From a virus, in the IMG/VR virus record IMGVR_UViG_3300005096_000005, positions 106,139-170,138 of that record: a stretch of DNA of 64,000 nt; one strand, written 5' to 3'. Numbering within the stretch: the first letter of the stretch is position 1; the number at the start of each line of letters is the position of its first letter. Made by a program: the position numbers and the translations under genes. Positions 51,287-63,927 of this stretch are shown piece by piece. The notes below the pieces were generated by a model. That model was given only the letters and a program-made list of their open reading frames with translations, did not search any database and was not told where the DNA came from.

Positions 51287-52789
51287 TTAGACCCCTCCGG
51301 TAATAAGTCCACCAACGACAATACCGCGAATGTCCGCCATAACGGGATCGTTCGCGACTCTCTTAATGCTGTCCCGAGCCTGTCTTATTAAACCTTTCCT
51401 TCCCCCGGGAGTTTTCAAATCTTCCAGGTCAATCGTACTCGGCAACAACATCTCCTGCAACTGATCGGCCTTTGCCTCCAACTTCCACTTATCTATAAAG
51501 TGCCGGACTTTACGCCCCAACTTGCCGACATCTCCATCCCAATTATGGAAGATGTGGTCACGAGCCGTCTCAATCACTTTTCGTAATGACTCCTGTTCGC
51601 GCTGTCTATCCAGAAGGATGAGCCCAACCTGAGAAAGGTTGACGTCGTAGGATACTGCATGAAAGAACCCCTTCATTGCTGTATCGTTCTGACTGGTCAT
51701 ACCCTCCACAACTGCGTCGGTAAGAGCCTGAAGCAGCGGGTTGTTTACCTTCGCCCTGTCCAACTTCCGCACCACGTCGTCTCCGTCGATATCGTAGCGG
51801 GACGCCATGTGCTGAATGTTGTGCATCAGGCGCACTCCCTGTTTCGTCGCAAGTTTCGCGGCCTGCCACGCGATCAGTCTGCGCGCCGTTCGGCTCCTTC
51901 CCAGGACCTTCGCTATTGTATCCTGCATCCTCCTACTATTCAAGACAGCCTTATCTATTGCTGTAACAAAAGAAGCGAACGCCGTTGCCCTGGCGCTCGC
52001 TGGTATGTCTGCAAATGAACTGATAAGCTGAAAGATATGTTCTTCAGAACCATAACTGAGTACCGAGTCGACATGCGAAAGCGCGAACGCATTCTGCAGA
52101 TTCTCGATCTCGGCTTGAGCTGTATATCCGATAATGCTCCCATAAGCCCCTTCAACATTCCGTCTGAACTCCCGTTCGTACTGGAGTTCCGTAATACTGT
52201 AGTCCAACCGCTGCACTTCCTGAAGGTCGAAGTCACTCGTGTTCAATAAAGCCTCAACCTTCTTTTGAAGGCCAGCCTGCTGGAGCTCTAAGCTCGGGGC
52301 TTTGCTTGGTTCTTTTATCCGGACCTTTTGTGTGGCTATCAGTTGAAACTCCTCTGAAAGCCTTGCGTATCGCTCCAGTACCGTCTGGTCTCCTGTGCGA
52401 TCGAACTCGTCCTTGGCTTCTTTTACTTGGAATGAGAGGTCGCGCAGTTTTTGCTCGACATTCTCATACGCAGATACCGTCTTCTCTGTGTACTCGTCTT
52501 CGTCTACTGTAACGGGTACAATCCGGTCATCTGCTACCGCGTCGACTATCTCACTCCAGGACTGTGCCGGAGAAGTGCCGTAAAAGGCGAGTCGACGATT
52601 CGTTTCATCTTCAAGGTCCAGCTCTTTAAGTCGATTATACACTCGTTCCTGAACGTTTGCAAGCCTTATTAGAGAAGTATAGACTCCATCTCTAATCTCA
52701 GATAAAGTGTTTTCCTTCTCTCCGAAGTTCCCAAAACGCCGTCCTCTTAACGCGACTGGTTGCTCAGAAAAGTTTATTCGTGTTGTCAT
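51287..52789 (-). CDS. Helical protein between TerL and portal
   Basis: A 500-residue protein from ATG 52789 (MTTRINFSEQPVALR), which overlaps the TGA of TerL; a GTG at 52813 is in frame but would overlap more. Residues 30-270 are long coiled-coil-like helices with many charged residues ('VEQKLRDLSFQVKEAKDEF'). The C-terminal half is helical too, and the protein ends 'IRGIVVGGLITGGV', a Gly-rich hydrophobic tail like those of the small membrane-active proteins upstream. I recognise no family. Position suggests a virion protein of the head or an internal protein ejected with DNA. Confidence 0.5.
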   Translation of the reverse strand: MTTRINFSEQPVALRGRRFGNFGEKENTLSEIRDGVYTSLIRLANVQERVYNRLKELDLEDETNRRLAFYGTSPAQSWSEIVDAVADDRIVPVTVDEDEYTEKTVSAYENVEQKLRDLSFQVKEAKDEFDRTGDQTVLERYARLSEEFQLIATQKVRIKEPSKAPSLELQQAGLQKKVEALLNTSDFDLQEVQRLDYSITELQYEREFRRNVEGAYGSIIGYTAQAEIENLQNAFALSHVDSVLSYGSEEHIFQLISSFADIPASARATAFASFVTAIDKAVLNSRRMQDTIAKVLGRSRTARRLIAWQAAKLATKQGVRLMHNIQHMASRYDIDGDDVVRKLDRAKVNNPLLQALTDAVVEGMTSQNDTAMKGFFHAVSYDVNLSQVGLILLDRQREQESLRKVIETARDHIFHNWDGDVGKLGRKVRHFIDKWKLEAKADQLQEMLLPSTIDLEDLKTPGGRKGLIRQARDSIKRVANDPVMADIRGIVVGGLITGGV

Positions 52790-55700
52790 CTCCCGCGGTA
52801 CCCCCTGCCCCACACCGAGCGATTTGAGGCCCCAGGCATTCTACGATTGGTACCAATACGACCCCTCCTCCCTCTTGGCGCTACAGGCTTTCGTCCTGAA
52901 GGCGGAATGTCGTATATTTGGAGAACCCCACCATTCATACGGGGATCCTCTTTTGGTTTCTTTGCGTCAGTATAGGGGTCTATGTAATACTTACCGTGTA
53001 CTCCGGGTCCTTGTCTTCCGTGACGTACAACTGCCCCCTTTGAACCTCTCGGGAAGATCAGCTCGTTGGAGAAGTTGGATATAAGTCCGAACAGGGCAAA
53101 CAACAAAGCGTCCAGTGCGTGTTCGTTCTTCATGGTGTACCTGGGCTGCCCTGTAGTAGCGCTCCGGGCTACAACCTGGTAATTCTCCATCTGCTCCTTA
53201 AGCTTCATATCTTTTTTGGAAGCGACCAGCGCACACTGCTCGGTCAGGCGCACGCCAAGCTGCACGAGATATGGTTTGATTGGTACCTTTGTGAACTCGC
53301 CCCGCTTGTAGGGGTCTGGTATCTCGACATGCTCTCCATAGAAGATTGGAACAACACGTTTCCCGAGACCTGTTTCGGGATGCTCCTTACCGTACTTATG
53401 TAAGTTCTCCACGACCATCTCTCCGTAGCCGCGGTCTACATATATGTATGAGGTCTTCCACTTCCGGTCCAACTCTATGATCTTATCGACAAGGGCGTGA
53501 AGGGTTAGTTCTCCTTTCCGCCCTTTTGGCATTGTCACTCTTTGGAGAATGAACGCTTTGTTGTACTTATCGTTCCACTCCACGATTACGATCTCAGGAC
53601 CGGTAGCGTACTTGTCCACGTCCACGCCCATAACGCGCTTTCTCGTTTTCGGATTAAAACGTGCCGGATAAGTATAGTTGGAGAAGCTCTTGAGCCCGGC
53701 TGCTTCTATAACTTGCTGATCCCCAAACATAATGTCCAGGTACCACTTCTGGAACACGCCAGCAAGTTCTTCGGGGAACTCGGCGAGCACCTCGGTAATA
53801 ATACCGTACTCATCGAACCCTGCCAGAATCTCCTCTCCAAACGTGACCGGATTGCCGTACACGTCGTAGTCCATAATGTTGTCCCAGTATGGAACTACAG
53901 AGGACGGGTAGTGGTGCACCATCCATCTCTTGCGAGGGTCCGTGTTCCACTTGTACCACATCCCGCGAGCGCCAGACGGGGTCGACGATGCGATAATTCT
54001 GATATGAGGGTTACCGATACGGATACCCATAATAGTCCGTAAGTCGTTGTCGTCGAGATAATCGGCCTCGTCAAGGATAATGAAGTCGGAATCTTTACCA
54101 CGAGAGGCACCACCCCCTGCGCCGGACTTTGTGCCTGCGGTCATTCCTGTGATAGTGGAGCCATTATTGAACCGCACTCTGTACGGCGGGGATTTTGTAA
54201 GCCGCCCAACCACCGACGCCTGAAGCGTTTCACTATTCTCGATCATGAAGTTAATGCCGGGACGATCCCAAAATATCTTCTTGACCTGTTCGTCATACGG
54301 AGTGAGGATAAGCACTTTCGAGTTTGGATGGGTAAAGGCGTGATGTAGCGCCTTAATCATAATGCTCGTAGTGTTATGAACCACAACATCGTTTGCAACA
54401 AAGTTGTATGTACCGTCTACATCAGAGAGGTCGTACGTCTGGTGTCTTCCGAGAGATTCAATGGAAACCACGGGATCCCAAATCACTTCAGAATCCGCAA
54501 GACCCTCCAGATAACTGTCTCCGCCAAGGTTCTTCGCATACCTCTTTAGTTTCTTCCTTGAAGGGGAGTCTCCTAAACGCAACCTCTTGTTATCGTATGT
54601 CGAGCCTCCAACTACAGCCCTTTTGGTTAGGCCCTTCATACGCCTTCGAACGTCAACATACGACATTACCCCGGCGGGGATTGCGTCGATCTTCCTGTTG
54701 CCTGTTATAGCCCTGCTGGCAAGCGCCTTTACTACTTCAAGAACGGCCTCCTCTTTTCCAAAGATACCGATCTTCCTGGCGAACATTTTGATATCCGCCG
54801 CCGCAGAGATAATAACCTGGTACGCAATTCGAATCCCACCATTATACTTAACACGTTTGCGCGACAGACTTGCGATGATACCAAACTTCAGCAGGAGCGA
54901 ATGGACATCGTGCGCCAGTTCTCCCGACACAGAACAGAACCCGATCTCCGCTCGTCCCTTATATTCTTCGCTCACACAAGCCCAACCGTCCGTCGCATAA
55001 AGCCGGTTAAGAAACAACGCCACCTGAGCCTCTGTTCCTCGAAAGATGTCCTTTGGAACCTTTTTGGTGTGAGCATTATGCTCTGCGATATCAGCATCCT
55101 TAAGAAACCGGTTAATTTGATGATTGTTCCTGCCGGAGACAATTGACTTGAACCAATAGTCACACTTCGACTTCGAAACCCGTTTCAACTGCGCCCCAAG
55201 CTCTCTGGCAATGACGCGCATCTCCTCGATATGTCGTTCATTGATAGAAGACCACCGGTGGCTTGTTGTACATGTTGTTCCACCGTCTCCAATCATGTAC
55301 CCCAGGAACTTGAGCTCCTGATCGGAATAGGACGAACCTATACCAAACCGTGTTTGTGACGGTACCGCAATCCTGTCGCCCAGCTGCACATCTTTGACAG
55401 GTATCCATTCTGGACGCTCGGTTCTGAATACAAGGACCGGATGCTCAGCGGTAAGGTCGACCTCACGCCCTGTGCGGGTTGTCAGTCGAAACACTTCCTT
55501 AACGCCATTATCGAGAACGTCGTATCCGTCTTTGGTTGTAAACTTGAAGTTGTTCTGAAGAGACGTAATTCCAGGACGGTCCTGCGACTTCATCTTTCGT
55601 AATTCGGCAACCGTTACATAAGCGCCATCATCAGTACTGACACGAACCCATCCCGGCAAACATTTTCCTGTCTGGCGTCCTAGCCTCCATACCTGATAAC

Positions 55701-56049
55701 GAGTAGTATCCTGGAGGAGCAATTCCTGGTACCAGCGCGGGTGGTAGTCAACGACCTGCTTTGACTCCGGATCGATGACTTTGATCTCTGTCTCCGCCCA
55801 CTTGCACGGATCGGCGAGAAGCATGACTTTCTTGCGCTCTTCGTCGGTCGGATAAGCATCGGCGAGCTCTGGATCGTTATCCCAGTCCGGCTCGAAAAAC
55901 GACCTGTCTCTTTCGTCAAACCAGTCCGGCTTTGGCATGTGCCTGATCTGGTCGGGCACCATCTCCGGGGCAAAGATATCCACATCCGAATGTTGCGGTT
56001 TAGTGAATAGATCTACAACCGGTTCCTGTGGAAGTCTCGGTAGAGACAT
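52786..56049 (-). CDS. Terminase large subunit interrupted by an intein
   Basis: A 1087-residue precursor: 657 residues of TerL plus a 430-residue intein (residues 130-559). After splicing the P-loop reads 'LGRQTGKTTSIM'. The ATPase part then shows Walker B 'DFIILDEADYL' and coupling motif 'IASSTPSG'; the C-terminal nuclease shows acidic residues in 'VMGVDVDKYATG', 'YIYVDRGYGEM' and 'NEHALDALLFALF'. TerL packages DNA into the prohead with ATP and cuts it. The ATG overlaps the previous stop (TAATG). Since the intein splits the Walker A loop, the ATPase can work only after splicing. Confidence 0.93.
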   Translation of the reverse strand: MSLPRLPQEPVVDLFTKPQHSDVDIFAPEMVPDQIRHMPKPDWFDERDRSFFEPDWDNDPELADAYPTDEERKKVMLLADPCKWAETEIKVIDPESKQVVDYHPRWYQELLLQDTTRYQVWRLGRQTGKCLPGWVRVSTDDGAYVTVAELRKMKSQDRPGITSLQNNFKFTTKDGYDVLDNGVKEVFRLTTRTGREVDLTAEHPVLVFRTERPEWIPVKDVQLGDRIAVPSQTRFGIGSSYSDQELKFLGYMIGDGGTTCTTSHRWSSINERHIEEMRVIARELGAQLKRVSKSKCDYWFKSIVSGRNNHQINRFLKDADIAEHNAHTKKVPKDIFRGTEAQVALFLNRLYATDGWACVSEEYKGRAEIGFCSVSGELAHDVHSLLLKFGIIASLSRKRVKYNGGIRIAYQVIISAAADIKMFARKIGIFGKEEAVLEVVKALASRAITGNRKIDAIPAGVMSYVDVRRRMKGLTKRAVVGGSTYDNKRLRLGDSPSRKKLKRYAKNLGGDSYLEGLADSEVIWDPVVSIESLGRHQTYDLSDVDGTYNFVANDVVVHNTTSIMIKALHHAFTHPNSKVLILTPYDEQVKKIFWDRPGINFMIENSETLQASVVGRLTKSPPYRVRFNNGSTITGMTAGTKSGAGGGASRGKDSDFIILDEADYLDDNDLRTIMGIRIGNPHIRIIASSTPSGARGMWYKWNTDPRKRWMVHHYPSSVVPYWDNIMDYDVYGNPVTFGEEILAGFDEYGIITEVLAEFPEELAGVFQKWYLDIMFGDQQVIEAAGLKSFSNYTYPARFNPKTRKRVMGVDVDKYATGPEIVIVEWNDKYNKAFILQRVTMPKGRKGELTLHALVDKIIELDRKWKTSYIYVDRGYGEMVVENLHKYGKEHPETGLGKRVVPIFYGEHVEIPDPYKRGEFTKVPIKPYLVQLGVRLTEQCALVASKKDMKLKEQMENYQVVARSATTGQPRYTMKNEHALDALLFALFGLISNFSNELIFPRGSKGAVVRHGRQGPGVHGKYYIDPYTDAKKPKEDPRMNGGVLQIYDIPPSGRKPVAPRGRRGRIGTNRRMPGASNRSVWGRGYRGR
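54373..55662 (-). mobile_element. Intein with LAGLIDADG-type homing endonuclease, in the TerL P-loop
   Basis: 430 codons from Cys130 to Asn559 of the precursor, between Gly-Lys and Thr-Thr of the Walker A motif. Block A starts CLPGWVRVST; block B is 'TAEHPVLV' (T200, H203); the homing-endonuclease motifs are 'LGYMIGDGG' (about 249-257) and 'LYATDGWA' (350-357), both with the needed Asp; the C-terminal blocks end 'YDLSDVDGTYNFVANDVVVH' then Asn, with Thr as the +1 extein residue. All splicing residues look intact. The endonuclease would copy the intein into intein-free terminase genes. Confidence 0.92.
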
Positions 56050-60673: not shown

Positions 60674-60702
60674 TTGACACACCCCCTGTGTGCCGTTATA
60701 AT
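60674..60702 (+). promoter_or_regulatory. Perfect-consensus sigma70 promoter with dyad in spacer
   Basis: TTGACA at 60674 starts immediately after the TAA of the Ig-like gene, and TATAAT at 60697 follows after 17 nt. The spacer contains the dyad CACAC-CCCCT-GTGTG (60678-60692), a possible operator. Confidence 0.85.
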
Positions 60703-60708
60703 CCGGGT

Positions 60709-60807
60709 GTCTTGTTTCACTGCGTGTCCACCGGACACAGAGTGACATACCAATCAAGGGCAATAAAGACGCCCGCCCACAGGCCGTCCTTATGGCGGCC
60801 TCTTTTT
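60709..60807 (+). ncRNA. Structured small RNA candidate, about 100 nt
   Basis: Promoter, RNA and terminator form one compact unit. Hairpin 1: CACT, 2-nt bulges, GTGTCC, loop ACC, GGACAC, AGTG (60718-60744). Hairpin 2: GGGC, 9-nt loop, GCCC (60758-60774). Hairpin 3 is the terminator. No ORF with a ribosome binding site occurs inside. The RNA could be a phage regulatory RNA or decoy; nothing in the window tells its target. It converges on the terminator of the zinc-ribbon operon. Confidence 0.65.
60781..60807 (+). terminator. Rho-independent terminator
   Basis: AGGCCG, a 9-nt loop, CGGCCT, then TCTTTTT. It ends the small RNA and probably also the endolysin operon. Confidence 0.8.
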
Positions 60808-60814
60808 ATGGCAC

Positions 60815-60847
60815 AAAAAAGCTCCCCCGCCCCTGCGAGCGGAGGAG
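60815..60847 (-). terminator. Rho-independent terminator of the right-hand minus operon
   Basis: On the minus strand CTCCTCCGC pairs with GCGGGGGAG (9 bp, one G-U) over an 8-nt loop, followed by C and six T. It lies 36 nt after the stop of the zinc-ribbon gene. Confidence 0.8.
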
Positions 60848-60882: not shown

Positions 60883-61800
60883 TTATCCTACTTGTGTCAG
60901 GAAGCACATAAGGTTGTATCCACAAGCGTGGCAATGCTTCTGATTAGTGGCGCACTTCGTGCCACACTCAGGACAGAACACCTTATCCCTGGTCGTTACT
61001 ACATTCTTCGCCGCGTGGAGCCTGATACGAATCTGGGCGGCCCTGTTGTCTTCCACTCTCATGCAAGACACCCGGAAACCGGTGCGACTTATGTCCCCCT
61101 GGGTCGTAGCTCCGGTCGGCCGCGTCCTGTTAACGTGCTGGCCGGTCGAGCGTTTCTTACTGAAGGTTCCAACAAGGCCCATCGCATCGTCCGAGAACAC
61201 AGTACCATCCATCTTTTCGCCTTTGAGAGATTCTCCGGCCGTGGTCGCTCCCGAAGGTGCGCATGACTCTTCGCACGCAGCCTCAGCCTCAGCCACAGGC
61301 GCCGCCGAAAAGTCGCCCATTGACCAATCTATCGTCGGAGGTCCGCCAATCTCGCCGGGAGCGCCAAACTTGCCAGACCTCATACTGTCGAGGATAGCGT
61401 CGCGAGTAATCACTTTCGATTCTTCTCTTTCGAAGTGGAAGTTGACAATGATAAGTCCATTGTCTCTGGAGTCGGGGTCCGGTGTAGCGTTCTGGCCTTC
61501 TCTGGAATTGAGAGCTACGAACTTCAGGGCTCTGCCCTTTGTCAGATCTCCGTCCAGCATGAACCGGTCAAGGGTGGTTGTGCCATGGGCTGGAATTACC
61601 AGTCCGCCCTGCAGTGCGTCCATACCGTCGATAGTGATGTACGCGGCGGCCCTTCTGTCGTGTTTGTTTTTGAGGAAGATTGTGTACTCTGTGTCGTGGG
61701 GGAGATAGACGACGCGCTCGCCGTTCTCCACGAACTCTCTGACTGTCTTACCGTCTTTTGTCTGAATAGATGCTACGAATCCTTCTGCATGTGCCATCAT
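60883..61800 (-). CDS. Beta-domain virion-type protein with C-terminal zinc ribbon
   Basis: A 305-residue protein (MMAHAEGFVASIQTK) with AAGGAG 8 nt before the first ATG. Residues 1-120 form a beta domain with 'RVVYLPHDTEYTIFLKNKHD', 'YITIDGMDALQGGLVIPAHG' and 'TTLDRFMLDGD', a pattern found in several phage surface or decoration proteins. A flexible Ala/Glu/Ser-rich middle with many Gly follows. The C-terminus is a zinc ribbon: 'VFCPECGTKCATNQKHCHAC' with paired C-x2-C. It is last in its operon and is followed by a terminator. It may attach to the virion or be an intracellular effector; the domain mix is uncommon. Confidence 0.6.
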   Translation of the reverse strand: MMAHAEGFVASIQTKDGKTVREFVENGERVVYLPHDTEYTIFLKNKHDRRAAAYITIDGMDALQGGLVIPAHGTTTLDRFMLDGDLTKGRALKFVALNSREGQNATPDPDSRDNGLIIVNFHFEREESKVITRDAILDSMRSGKFGAPGEIGGPPTIDWSMGDFSAAPVAEAEAACEESCAPSGATTAGESLKGEKMDGTVFSDDAMGLVGTFSKKRSTGQHVNRTRPTGATTQGDISRTGFRVSCMRVEDNRAAQIRIRLHAAKNVVTTRDKVFCPECGTKCATNQKHCHACGYNLMCFLTQVG

Positions 61801-61872: not shown

Positions 61873-62058
61873 TTAATCGATCGAAAGCGCTTCTTCCTTT
61901 TTACCTCCCTTCTCTCTCATTAGTTTGTGGTACTTCTCGCGTTCGGTCGTGTTACCCGGTGACGCTTCTGCAAACTCGAACCTTTCGTTGCCGAAGTCCT
62001 GGTCGGCCCCGGAAAGCATATTCTTCATCTGGTTAGCCACGTTGCTCAACGGATCCAT
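61873..62058 (-). CDS. Small polar protein
   Basis: A 61-residue protein (MDPLSNVANQMKNML) with GCAGGAG 5 nt before the ATG. Charged and helical with C-terminal 'REKGGKKEEALSID'. Nothing recognisable; the strong ribosome binding site and its place in a run of small genes make it likely real. Confidence 0.6.
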   Translation of the reverse strand: MDPLSNVANQMKNMLSGADQDFGNERFEFAEASPGNTTEREKYHKLMREKGGKKEEALSID

Positions 62059-62089: not shown

Positions 62090-62389
62090 TTACTTCTCTA
62101 CCGCGACATCTTTCCATATCTCTTTTTCCGTATCATACTGCTGCAGGGATACGACCGCGGATATTCTGTCTTCGTTGCCGTCTTCCCACAGGATGTCGGT
62201 ATGGTTAGCAAAAAGCAATTCCCAGGCTTTCTCCAGTTCTCCGGTATACGGCTCCCCTATCCTGGCGCGTCCCCTGCCTTTTTTCTCGTGATACTCTGCC
62301 GCGAGCTTCAAAGCATCCAGAGCATCGCCGTCGAAGTCGTCCGGCAGTGCGAATGCTGCTATTATCATCGCGACTTTATTTGACTTCAT
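62090..62389 (-). CDS. Small acidic helical protein
   Basis: A 99-residue protein (MKSNKVAMIIAAFAL) with GAGGG 5 nt before the ATG. 'GDALDALKLAAEYHEKKGRG' suggests helices, and the C-terminus is acidic. The first 15 residues are hydrophobic enough for a weak membrane-associated helix. No family recognised. Confidence 0.6.
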   Translation of the reverse strand: MKSNKVAMIIAAFALPDDFDGDALDALKLAAEYHEKKGRGRARIGEPYTGELEKAWELLFANHTDILWEDGNEDRISAVVSLQQYDTEKEIWKDVAVEK

Positions 62390-62398
62390 AGTGCCCTC

Positions 62399-62563
62399 TC
62401 AGTCGTAGATTACCGGACTTTTCTTCTCACCGGCGGGTTGCTCTTTCAGTTCCTCCACAAACCTTTTTTCCATCGCGCTGTGGCCTCCGCCGCCTTTCTC
62501 ATTCGTCGAGCTCGAAGCCCTGTCCAGGTCCTGCGGTTTTCCCTTTTCATTTAGGTCCTGCAT
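62399..62563 (-). CDS. Small polar protein, 54 residues
   Basis: Too short for most gene finders. ATG 62563 follows GGAGGAATT, a very strong ribosome binding site, and encodes MQDLNEKGKPQDLDR, a Gly-rich centre, then 'MEKRFVEELKEQPAGEKK', ending VIYD. The TGA lies 10 nt before the next ATG. Its start overlaps the end of the preceding frame. Confidence 0.6.
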   Translation of the reverse strand: MQDLNEKGKPQDLDRASSSTNEKGGGGHSAMEKRFVEELKEQPAGEKKSPVIYD

Positions 62564-62712
62564 AATTCCTCCTCATTCCTCCTCAGGTATCTTTCTCCGG
62601 TATCACTGTTCGCCCTAATGGGATCGATTCCGGTTTTTTTCGTCAGCTCCAAAAGCGCGAGGCGTATATTGCAGCAACCGATAATGTGTCGAGCTTCCTC
62701 CGGGGCGATCAG
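62551..62712 (-). CDS. Small helical protein, probable CTG start
   Basis: The frame 'LIAPEEARHIIGCCNIRLAL' to 'RYLRRNEEELCRT' (53 residues) begins where the thermonuclease-like gene ends. Its only close start is CTG 62712, which overlaps that gene's TGA as CTGA, with AGAGGAG 8 nt upstream, mirroring the ATGA and GTGA junctions elsewhere. A longer frame from ATG 62913 exists but is a shadow of the nuclease gene. Two Cys and a charged helix; function unknown. Confidence 0.45.
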   Translation of the reverse strand: MIAPEEARHIIGCCNIRLALLELTKKTGIDPIRANSDTGERYLRRNEEELCRT

Positions 62713-63104
62713 CCCCTGTACTCCTCTGCAAGTCCAGCGGCCAGCAGGTCTGCGTTCAGGACCCTCGTCTCGTGCCCACCCGGCAGCCCCGGCACATCGT
62801 TCCGCCAATCGATGGCGGCTATCTGTCCCAGGTAGCGTCCGTACTTGCCCTGCTTGTCCTTGAAAGTGGTTACGATTATGCTCAGGCCGTCGGTCTTTGC
62901 TTTTTCGAACCATGTTTTCACGAACTCCTTTGCCTCGACAGCTTTCGCTCTGGACTCGGCGGTGCCACCGCGAAGCTCCGGCGTGTTGATGTTTGAAAGA
63001 CGTATTCTCTGGAGGGTGTAGGTTCTAAATCCGAGGTCTACCATCAGGTCGACAGTGTCGCCGTCAACAACTTTTACCACGTCGCTTACGCTGTACTGAT
63101 ACAT
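62709..63104 (-). CDS. Thermonuclease (staphylococcal nuclease-like)
   Basis: A 131-residue enzyme (MYQYSVSDVVKVVDG) with GGAGAG before the ATG. It holds the active-site set of the SNase family: D14 and D16 in 'VVDGDTVDL' (calcium site), R35 and E43 in 'IRLSNINTPELRG', and R90 in 'KYGRYLG'. The family cuts single- and double-stranded DNA and RNA near A/T positions with calcium. Length is that of a minimal domain, without a signal peptide, so it would act in the cell. It sits in a small-gene operon with a CheY-like receiver. It may degrade host nucleic acid or process phage DNA. Confidence 0.85.
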   Translation of the reverse strand: MYQYSVSDVVKVVDGDTVDLMVDLGFRTYTLQRIRLSNINTPELRGGTAESRAKAVEAKEFVKTWFEKAKTDGLSIIVTTFKDKQGKYGRYLGQIAAIDWRNDVPGLPGGHETRVLNADLLAAGLAEEYRG

Positions 63105-63255
63105 CTTTTACTCTCCATTCCTCGTAGCCGCTCATCAGCCATTCCCAGAATCCCGGAGGCGCTTCTCTATCGGCCGATGCTTTCAGGTCTTTCAGTGTGA
63201 CTGCGTCACGTTCGGGCTGTTTGCTCACTTGTCTTTGAAGCCTCCGTGTGCACAC
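63064..63255 (-). CDS. Small basic protein
   Basis: Up to 63 residues from GTG 63255, or 54 residues from GTG 63228; both starts have imperfect ribosome binding sites (GGAGG lies 12 nt before the second). Contains 'APPGFWEWLMSGYEEWRVKD', rich in Trp, and a basic C-terminus RKRRGKSC. It overlaps the thermonuclease start by 41 nt. Likely real from its packing; function unknown. Confidence 0.45.
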   Translation of the reverse strand: MCTRRLQRQVSKQPERDAVTLKDLKASADREAPPGFWEWLMSGYEEWRVKDVSVQRKRRGKSC

Positions 63256-63266
63256 ATCATACTCCG

Positions 63267-63653
63267 CTACCGGAGTGCTGTCAAGACTGTTTGCATAATC
63301 TTTCCAACGTCATACGGTTTTTTGAAGAAAGCGTGTCCCAATTGCTCCGCGGTATCGGCCCACTCGTCCCTGCCGGACACGAAGATTATGATCGGATCCA
63401 AACCCAGGGCGTGGATCTTGGTAGCGCACAGGAAGCCGTTCATCACCGGCATGTCCACATCCAGAATCACAACGTCAGGCTGGCTGGCATAGACCACCTC
63501 AGCGCCCTCACGCCCATCACAGGCCGTACCCACAACCCTGAATTCCTCCGTCAGGTTCAGCGTCTCAAGAAGAGACGTAATGAGCTCTGGCGTGTCATCG
63601 ACGATGACAACCCTTATCTCATCCTCTTTCTCCCGATCTCCTGAAAAGTTCAT
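63267..63653 (-). CDS. CheY-like response regulator receiver, single domain
   Basis: A 128-residue protein (MNFSGDREKEDEIRV) with AAGGGG 6 nt before the ATG. All receiver residues are present: acidic pocket D19-D20 ('VIVDD'), phosphoacceptor D65 ('VILDVDMPVMNG'), S93 in 'VSGRDEW', and K112 in 'FFKKPYD'. There is no output domain. In bacteria such proteins take phosphate from histidine kinases and act by protein contact. A phage-borne copy could short-circuit host signalling or tune phage regulation. It is the first gene of the right-hand operon, downstream of the twin repeats. Confidence 0.85.
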   Translation of the reverse strand: MNFSGDREKEDEIRVVIVDDTPELITSLLETLNLTEEFRVVGTACDGREGAEVVYASQPDVVILDVDMPVMNGFLCATKIHALGLDPIIIFVSGRDEWADTAEQLGHAFFKKPYDVGKIMQTVLTALR

Positions 63654-63720
63654 GTCTATCCCCTTTAGCTATGCGTTATACACATACACGTCCATTGTAC
63701 CTTACGGCAGGATGCCTGGG

Positions 63721-63756
63721 AAGCCTTATAGGGAAAAACTCGTGTGTAATATTATT
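63721..63756. repeat. Direct repeat copy 1 (36 bp) with two dyads
   Basis: Contains CCTTATAGGG, then AAAAAC, GTG and TAATATTATT. Part of a pair 60 bp apart, upstream of the receiver gene. Confidence 0.8.
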
Positions 63757-63780
63757 CGGCCCCGGGCTCCGGCGCCCGCG

Positions 63781-63817
63781 AGGCCCTATAGGGAAAACAG
63801 GCGTGAATAATATTATT
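63781..63817. repeat. Direct repeat copy 2 (37 bp) with two perfect dyads
   Basis: Contains the perfect palindromes CCCTATAGGG and AATAATATTATT, joined by AAAACAGGCGTG. Shares about three quarters of its bases with copy 1, with the same order of elements. Confidence 0.8.
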
Positions 63818-63927
63818 GCAGTAAAGCGGGCTCAAGGCATACCGGCTGGGTGGGGGTGGGTACCCCACCTTATCCCCGTTATATGTTCGAAGTCGAGTTC
63901 GGTGCCCACCGGGTCATTCCGCACTGG

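What the first reader, a model, noticed from the sequence alone, without database searches (positions are those of the whole stretch)
63267..63653. Phage-encoded stand-alone CheY-like receiver
All phosphorylation residues are intact and there is no output domain. Phages seldom carry receivers. It leads an operon with a thermonuclease and several unknown small proteins, a typical early host-takeover set. It might drain phosphate from host kinases (for sporulation, competence or stress), or answer them.
Basis: partly seen in the sequence, partly recalled or inferred. Interest (0 to 1): 0.6.

Follow-up and report, generated by a model that had tools for sequence, protein, structure and literature searches.

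The report
Phage-borne stand-alone receiver protein
A large bacterial virus carries a small, complete-looking signal-receiving switch of the kind bacteria use to respond to their surroundings, with no partner kinase of its own; other phages are already known to carry such switches, so this is a new, untested example of something rare rather than a new kind of thing.

Summary
Window 63267-63653 (-) encodes a 128-aa receiver: one full-length PF00072 match (66 bits), every phosphorylation residue present (D19, D20, D65, S93, K112), a confident canonical fold (pLDDT 91.8) and no output domain. The record is a real phage (terminase, portal, capsid), distantly akin to Moorella phage MTATph1 and Bacillus phage KLEB27-3. 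The profiles tried find no histidine kinase, Hpt or sigma factor in it, so a phosphoryl donor would have to come from the host.

Two parts of the interpretation weaken. The gene is first in its cluster, but a near-consensus sigma-70/sigma-A promoter (63284-63256, 11/12) overlaps its 3' end, so the nuclease genes need not be co-transcribed with it; early timing is unshown. A Spo0A-derived receiver is not supported: an unrelated NarL-type receiver scores as high on the Spo0A profile, and a tree places it outside a well-supported Spo0A clade. Spo0F was not tested directly.

Stand-alone phage receivers are already in print (Alteromonas phages V22 gp30, A5 gp11; function untested), and a 407-kb viral contig carries two. 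Most likely it is a host-coupled single-domain response regulator that perturbs a host two-component pathway. New member of a known kind; moderate-low interest.

The parts
63267..63653 (-). Stand-alone receiver (CheY-like) gene, 128 aa; D19 D20 D65 S93 K112
   Evidence: PF00072 66 bits; residues; AF2 pLDDT 91.8
63256..63284 (-). Near-consensus sigma-70/sigma-A promoter TTGACA-17-TATGAT (11/12) overlapping the receiver's 3' end; inverted repeat ACTCCG-gtag-CGGAGT spans most of the spacer
   Evidence: (8 such sites in 170 kb, about 1.4 expected on both strands), sequence
63064..63228 (-). Small ORF, 54 aa from GTG at 63228 (the listed start 63255 falls at the promoter's -10)
   Evidence: no Pfam or PHROGs match for the 63-aa form
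62709..63104 (-). Staphylococcal-nuclease-like (thermonuclease) gene, 131 aa; TPE at 41 and YGR at 88 present
   Evidence: PF00565 27.5 bits over cut-off 21; phrog_452 endonuclease 8e-31
62399..62563 (-). Small ORF, 54 aa, strong ribosome-binding site, no known family
62090..62389 (-). Small ORF, 99 aa, no known family over cut-off
61873..62058 (-). Small ORF, 61 aa, no known family
60883..61800 (-). 305-aa protein with weak C-terminal zinc-ribbon match; homologues in Xanthomonas phage XacN1 and Stenotrophomonas phages
60822..60847 (-). Intrinsic-terminator-like hairpin closing the minus-strand cluster
63694..63722 (-). Weak promoter-like site upstream of the receiver gene (TTCCCA-17-TACAAT, 9/12)
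   Evidence: consensus match only
63714..63822 (.). Two copies, about 60 bp apart, of a roughly 45-bp segment holding palindromes CCCTATAGGG and AATAATATTATT; possible operator or control region upstream of the receiver
   Evidence: the full element occurs only at these two places in the genome

Best explanation
A phosphorylation-competent single-domain response regulator made by a large tailed phage. Shown: receiver sequence and fold, complete set of acidic-pocket residues, no output domain, no kinase, Hpt or sigma-70 match found in the phage contig. Inferred: since no phosphoryl donor was found in the phage, the protein would be phosphorylated by a host histidine kinase (or small phosphodonors) or bind one; without a DNA-binding or enzymatic domain, its effect is most likely to perturb a host two-component pathway by competing with the cognate regulator for the kinase and acting as a phosphoryl sink.
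For: PF00072 over nearly the whole profile; catalytic residues invariant or nearly so across 18 receivers and present here; canonical fold, pLDDT 91.8, Z about 20 to solved receivers; no HATPase_c, HisKA or Hpt match in the contig, with controls positive; phage origin: TerL, portal and major capsid; codon usage like the other phage genes, so not visibly a foreign fragment. Phages are known to target two-component systems by other means (PIT4 binds histidine kinases, PMC10714779).
Against: No biochemical or expression data; the host is unknown, so no partner kinase can be named; no close homologue was found with which to show purifying selection or a conserved partner gene; the receiver is on a long branch. 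Adaptor use (CheY/DivK mode) fits the same facts. The contig may be incomplete, so a missing kinase gene is not excluded.
Confidence: 0.42

Rival explanations
1. Phospho-switchable adaptor: when phosphorylated by the host it binds one particular host or phage protein through its alpha4-beta5-alpha5 face, as CheY, DivK or EpsW do, so that the phage reads host state rather than drains it.
For: Single-domain response regulators with other partners or targets are well known (for example EpsW, PMC4671073; a regulator that activates a phosphoglycosyl transferase, PMC12802240; abstracts only). Thr/Ser (S93) and aromatic (F109) switch positions are filled. The gene lies beside a control-like region with duplicated palindromes.
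Against: No target identified; no conserved neighbour gene across phages, and the region has no DNA match in the phage collection.
Confidence: 0.33
2. Accessory passenger gene: a captured bacterial receiver carried in a variable region, with marginal or no signalling role.
For: Absent from both isolate relatives and from 21 of 22 related viral records, several of them fragments; long branch in the tree.
Against: All catalytic residues kept despite divergence; plausible start and ribosome-binding site.
Confidence: 0.18
3. Spo0A- or Spo0F-derived decoy that blocks host sporulation.
For: Best NCBIfam model is Spo0A (63.2 bits) and Spo0A ranks second among solved chains by sequence; isolate relatives infect Moorella and Bacillus, genera that include spore formers (general knowledge); phages with spo0A homologues are described (PMC10294663).
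Against: A NarL-type receiver scores 65.2 on the same Spo0A model and others 53-57; Spo0A receivers form a clade of 99/97 support without it; in the Clostridium genome searched the true Spo0A is not its best match.
Confidence: 0.04
4. cRec-type enzyme that processes cyclic phosphates rather than a signalling receiver.
For: cRec domains are reported in up to 18% of jumbo phages (PMC9503650).
Against: Only PF00072 is matched, no other Pfam family up to E 0.1; none of the neighbours scanned shows an NAD or ADP-ribose enzyme match.
Confidence: 0.02

Closest known systems
Alteromonas phage V22 gp30 and phage A5 gp11 (CheY-like, IPR001789, 149 and 147 aa; PMC7289586, PMC10579305)
   Same: Stand-alone receiver in a tailed phage; V22 gp30 scores 79 bits on PF00072 and keeps the DD, D, S and K residues; it is also found by fold search
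   Different: Lies in the tail-fibre/host-recognition module; 29% identity; different phage lineage; no evidence of common origin of the two genes
Two receiver genes of viral contig G001, 407 kb (IMGVR_UViG_3300036853_000446)
   Same: Receiver-only genes on a contig with a terminase large subunit match
   Different: About 28-29% identity; neighbours of one are RNase HII-like and DNA methyltransferase-like genes (my reading of the sequences)
Bacterial single-domain response regulators (CheY, Spo0F, DivK, EpsW)
   Same: Domain, fold and catalytic residues
   Different: No family-level assignment: matches to all are weak and tied
Receivers of LytTR- and YesN-like regulators of Bacillota
   Same: Best identity found (35-37%, Clostridia regulators with a LytTR-like tail by my reading) and nearest by tree path
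   Different: Those carry output domains; the tree position is weakly supported; the genome scan was restricted to patterns taken from this protein
PIT4 of Pseudomonas phage LSL4 (PMC10714779)
   Same: Phage protein acting on host two-component systems
   Different: Binds histidine kinases; in the passages I read not described as a receiver

Membership tests
Receiver domain (PF00072) / single-domain response regulator | Sequence profile over the full domain | tested here: met
   66.3 bits, positions 1-110 of 111
Receiver domain (PF00072) / single-domain response regulator | Acidic pair, phospho-Asp, Thr/Ser, Lys | tested here: met
   D19 D20 D65 S93 K112
Receiver domain (PF00072) / single-domain response regulator | (beta-alpha)5 fold | tested here: met
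   pLDDT 91.8, five alternating strands and helices; Z about 20-21 with solved receivers
Receiver domain (PF00072) / single-domain response regulator | No output domain | tested here: met
   128 aa, receiver spans 13-127; other part is a 12-residue tail
Receiver domain (PF00072) / single-domain response regulator | Accepts phosphate from a histidine kinase | not testable with these tools
   needs biochemistry
Spo0A receiver | Scores on the Spo0A model well above non-Spo0A receivers | tested here: not met
   63.2 bits versus 53-65 for unrelated receivers; cut-off 200 for the whole protein
Spo0A receiver | Groups inside the Spo0A clade | tested here: not met
   outside a 99/97 clade of Spo0A receivers
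Spo0F | Closest relative is Spo0F | tested here: inconclusive
   Spo0F chains are matched, but lower than many others; no Spo0F model was tested
cRec (cyclic-phosphate Receiver of phages, PMC7824862) | Matches a cRec profile, not classical PF00072 | tested here: not met
   only PF00072 at E up to 0.1 in a full Pfam scan
cRec (cyclic-phosphate Receiver of phages, PMC7824862) | Linked to NAD/ADP-ribose or RNA-repair enzymes | tested here: not met
   scanned neighbours: nuclease, small unknowns, zinc-ribbon-like protein
Early host-takeover operon gene | Transcribed early from a strong host-type promoter | tested here: inconclusive
   strong promoter serves the genes after the receiver; only weak candidates precede it

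The most novel reading that the evidence does not exclude
The phage reads a host two-component signal through this receiver and uses it to time its own programme, with the palindrome-rich region upstream of the gene and the operator-like promoter inside its 3' end as the regulated sites.
Probability: 0.06. Interest if true: 0.75.

Novelty: new member of a known kind. Interest (0 to 1): 0.3.

Why it matters
Stand-alone phage receivers are rare and, in the papers found, uncharacterised; if one is shown to take phosphate from host kinases it would be a direct viral plug-in to bacterial two-component signalling. This example keeps every catalytic residue, so a single D65A mutant makes the question testable. 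By itself it adds one more case to a kind already reported.

Tried and rejected
Spo0A origin: attractive first hit, rejected by control receivers and by a tree (a first tree, used some wrongly oriented loci and is discarded). Phage-collection matches: those inspected lie in bacterial DNA labelled phage. A mixed receiver alignment was too divergent to scan with. Single-protein scans for the capsid, terminase and 305-aa protein found no viral relatives; the capsid alignment did. No kinase, Hpt or sigma-70 match in the contig. The duplicated palindromic element was not found in other viral contigs and has no unusual folding. No Rfam family in the window or the receiver region. PDB matches do not single out one receiver family: the top rows are tied in Z.

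Full report
OBSERVATION. The ORF at 63267-63653 (-) is real: ATG start preceded by AAGGGG, TAG stop, 128 aa. It matches PF00072 with 66.3 bits over positions 1-110 of 111 and no other Pfam family up to E 0.1. D19/D20, D65, S93 and K112 fill the acidic pair, phospho-acceptor, Thr/Ser and Lys positions; F109 is at the aromatic switch. The AlphaFold2 model, from 18 receivers, has mean pLDDT 91.8 and the alternating strand-helix order of receivers, with only a loose 12-residue N-terminal tail. Solved CheY, Spo0A, VicR, YycF and ArlR receivers match at Z about 20-21, tied.

IS IT PHAGE? The window is the last 64 kb of a 170,138-base IMG/VR record. It holds a terminase large subunit, a portal and a major head protein, with best isolate relatives Moorella phage MTATph1 (capsid 44%) and Bacillus phage KLEB27-3 (capsid 37.5%, terminase 32%). 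The left arm carries DNA polymerase III alpha, DnaB, primase-like, ribonucleotide reductase, RecA-like and ligase genes and 18 tRNAs. The receiver's codon usage resembles other phage genes. The contig does not close on itself, so genes may be missing beyond its ends; the receiver gene lies under 500 bases from the right end.

SURROUNDINGS. The minus-strand cluster runs from the receiver through a small ORF, a staphylococcal-nuclease-like gene (PF00565; TPE and YGR motifs present), several small unknowns and a 305-aa protein with a weak zinc-ribbon match, to a terminator-like hairpin at 60847-60822. However, TTGACA-17-TATGAT (11/12) lies at 63284-63256 (-), inside the receiver's last codons and just past its stop. 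A genome-wide scan finds only eight sites this good, against about 1.4 expected by chance (0.7 per strand), and others lie upstream of the tRNA array and of the minus-strand terminase/structural block. The next gene then starts most plausibly at GTG 63228, after a GGAGG. So the nuclease genes can be transcribed without the receiver. This is a consensus match, not a mapped start. Upstream of the receiver are only weak promoter-like sites and a duplicated palindromic segment. Early timing therefore stays open.

PARTNERS. No HATPase_c, HisKA, Hpt or sigma-70 region 2 match was found in the contig at E up to 1, with control genomes positive. Kinases of unknown kind or genes off the contig are not excluded.

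RELATIVES. In the phage collection at the default threshold, the hits I inspected lie in bacterial DNA labelled as phage, for example a Spo0A-like gene followed by a glycogen-synthase-like gene and a ypdA/ypdB operon between argH and hemC. Of 22 viral records related by capsid, several of them fragments, one has PF00072, and there it is a full OmpR-type regulator; MTATph1 and KLEB27-3 have none. A 407-kb viral contig with a terminase match carries two receiver-only genes. Fold search of viral proteins brings V22 gp30, another CheY-like protein of an uncultured tailed phage, and full regulators. The literature describes V22 gp30 and A5 gp11 as CheY-like proteins in a host-recognition module, suggested as auxiliary genes, without functional test that I found (PMC7289586, PMC10579305). 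V22 gp30 keeps the catalytic residues. The kind is thus known and rare.

WHICH RECEIVER FAMILY? Spo0A is the best NCBIfam model (63.2 bits), and this would have suited a sporulation story. As a control, receivers of other families score 53-65 bits on the same model, while their own families score higher. In a tree of 47 receivers the Spo0A rows form a clade with 99/97 support that excludes the phage protein, which sits on a long branch near LytTR- and YesN-like rows with weak support (those two family names are my reading of the sequences). The best cellular matches found were Clostridia LytTR-type regulators at 35-37%, from a scan limited to peptide patterns of this protein. I conclude a divergent receiver of no assignable family; Spo0F was not tested directly.

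MECHANISM. Shown: an apparently functional receiver with no output domain and no phage donor detected. Inferred: phosphorylation or binding by host kinases. I rate competition/sink at 0.42, adaptor with a specific protein target at 0.33, passenger at 0.18; the remainder covers the Spo0 and cRec readings. Sequence cannot separate the first two.

NOVELTY. New member of a known, rare and uncharacterised kind. cRec, the divergent receiver of jumbo phages (PMC7824862, PMC9503650), is a different family and was not matched. Interest 0.3.

Noticed in passing
window 60674-60808 (+): Perfect TTGACA-17-TATAAT promoter followed about 80 nt later by an intrinsic-terminator-like hairpin, with no clear gene between: candidate small RNA of about 100 nt, folding z -4.2, no Rfam match.
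   Followed up: partly
window 54376-55662 (-), inside TerL 52786-56049: Intein-like insertion at Walker A of the terminase large subunit, shared at the same site with Bacillus phage KLEB27-3 and absent in Moorella phage MTATph1.
   Followed up: partly
window 63714-63822: Two imperfect copies of a roughly 45-bp segment with palindromes CCCTATAGGG and AATAATATTATT, only here in the genome; possible operators.
   Followed up: partly
window 63256-63284 (-): Inverted repeat ACTCCG-gtag-CGGAGT spans most of the spacer of the strong promoter and the palindrome GTGTGCACAC follows it: promoter looks repressor-controlled.
   Followed up: no
L002:784-859: tRNA with CTA anticodon (ARAGORN 'Pyl'), a possible amber suppressor; TAG ends 6 of 69 sampled genes, the receiver among them.
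   Followed up: partly
L100:1159-1866 (-): Related 245-kb phage record G007 encodes a full OmpR/PhoB-type response regulator.
   Followed up: partly
L016, L018, L019: Records labelled phage that hold ordinary bacterial chromosome: Spo0A-like genes, a ypdA/ypdB operon between argH and hemC.
   Followed up: partly
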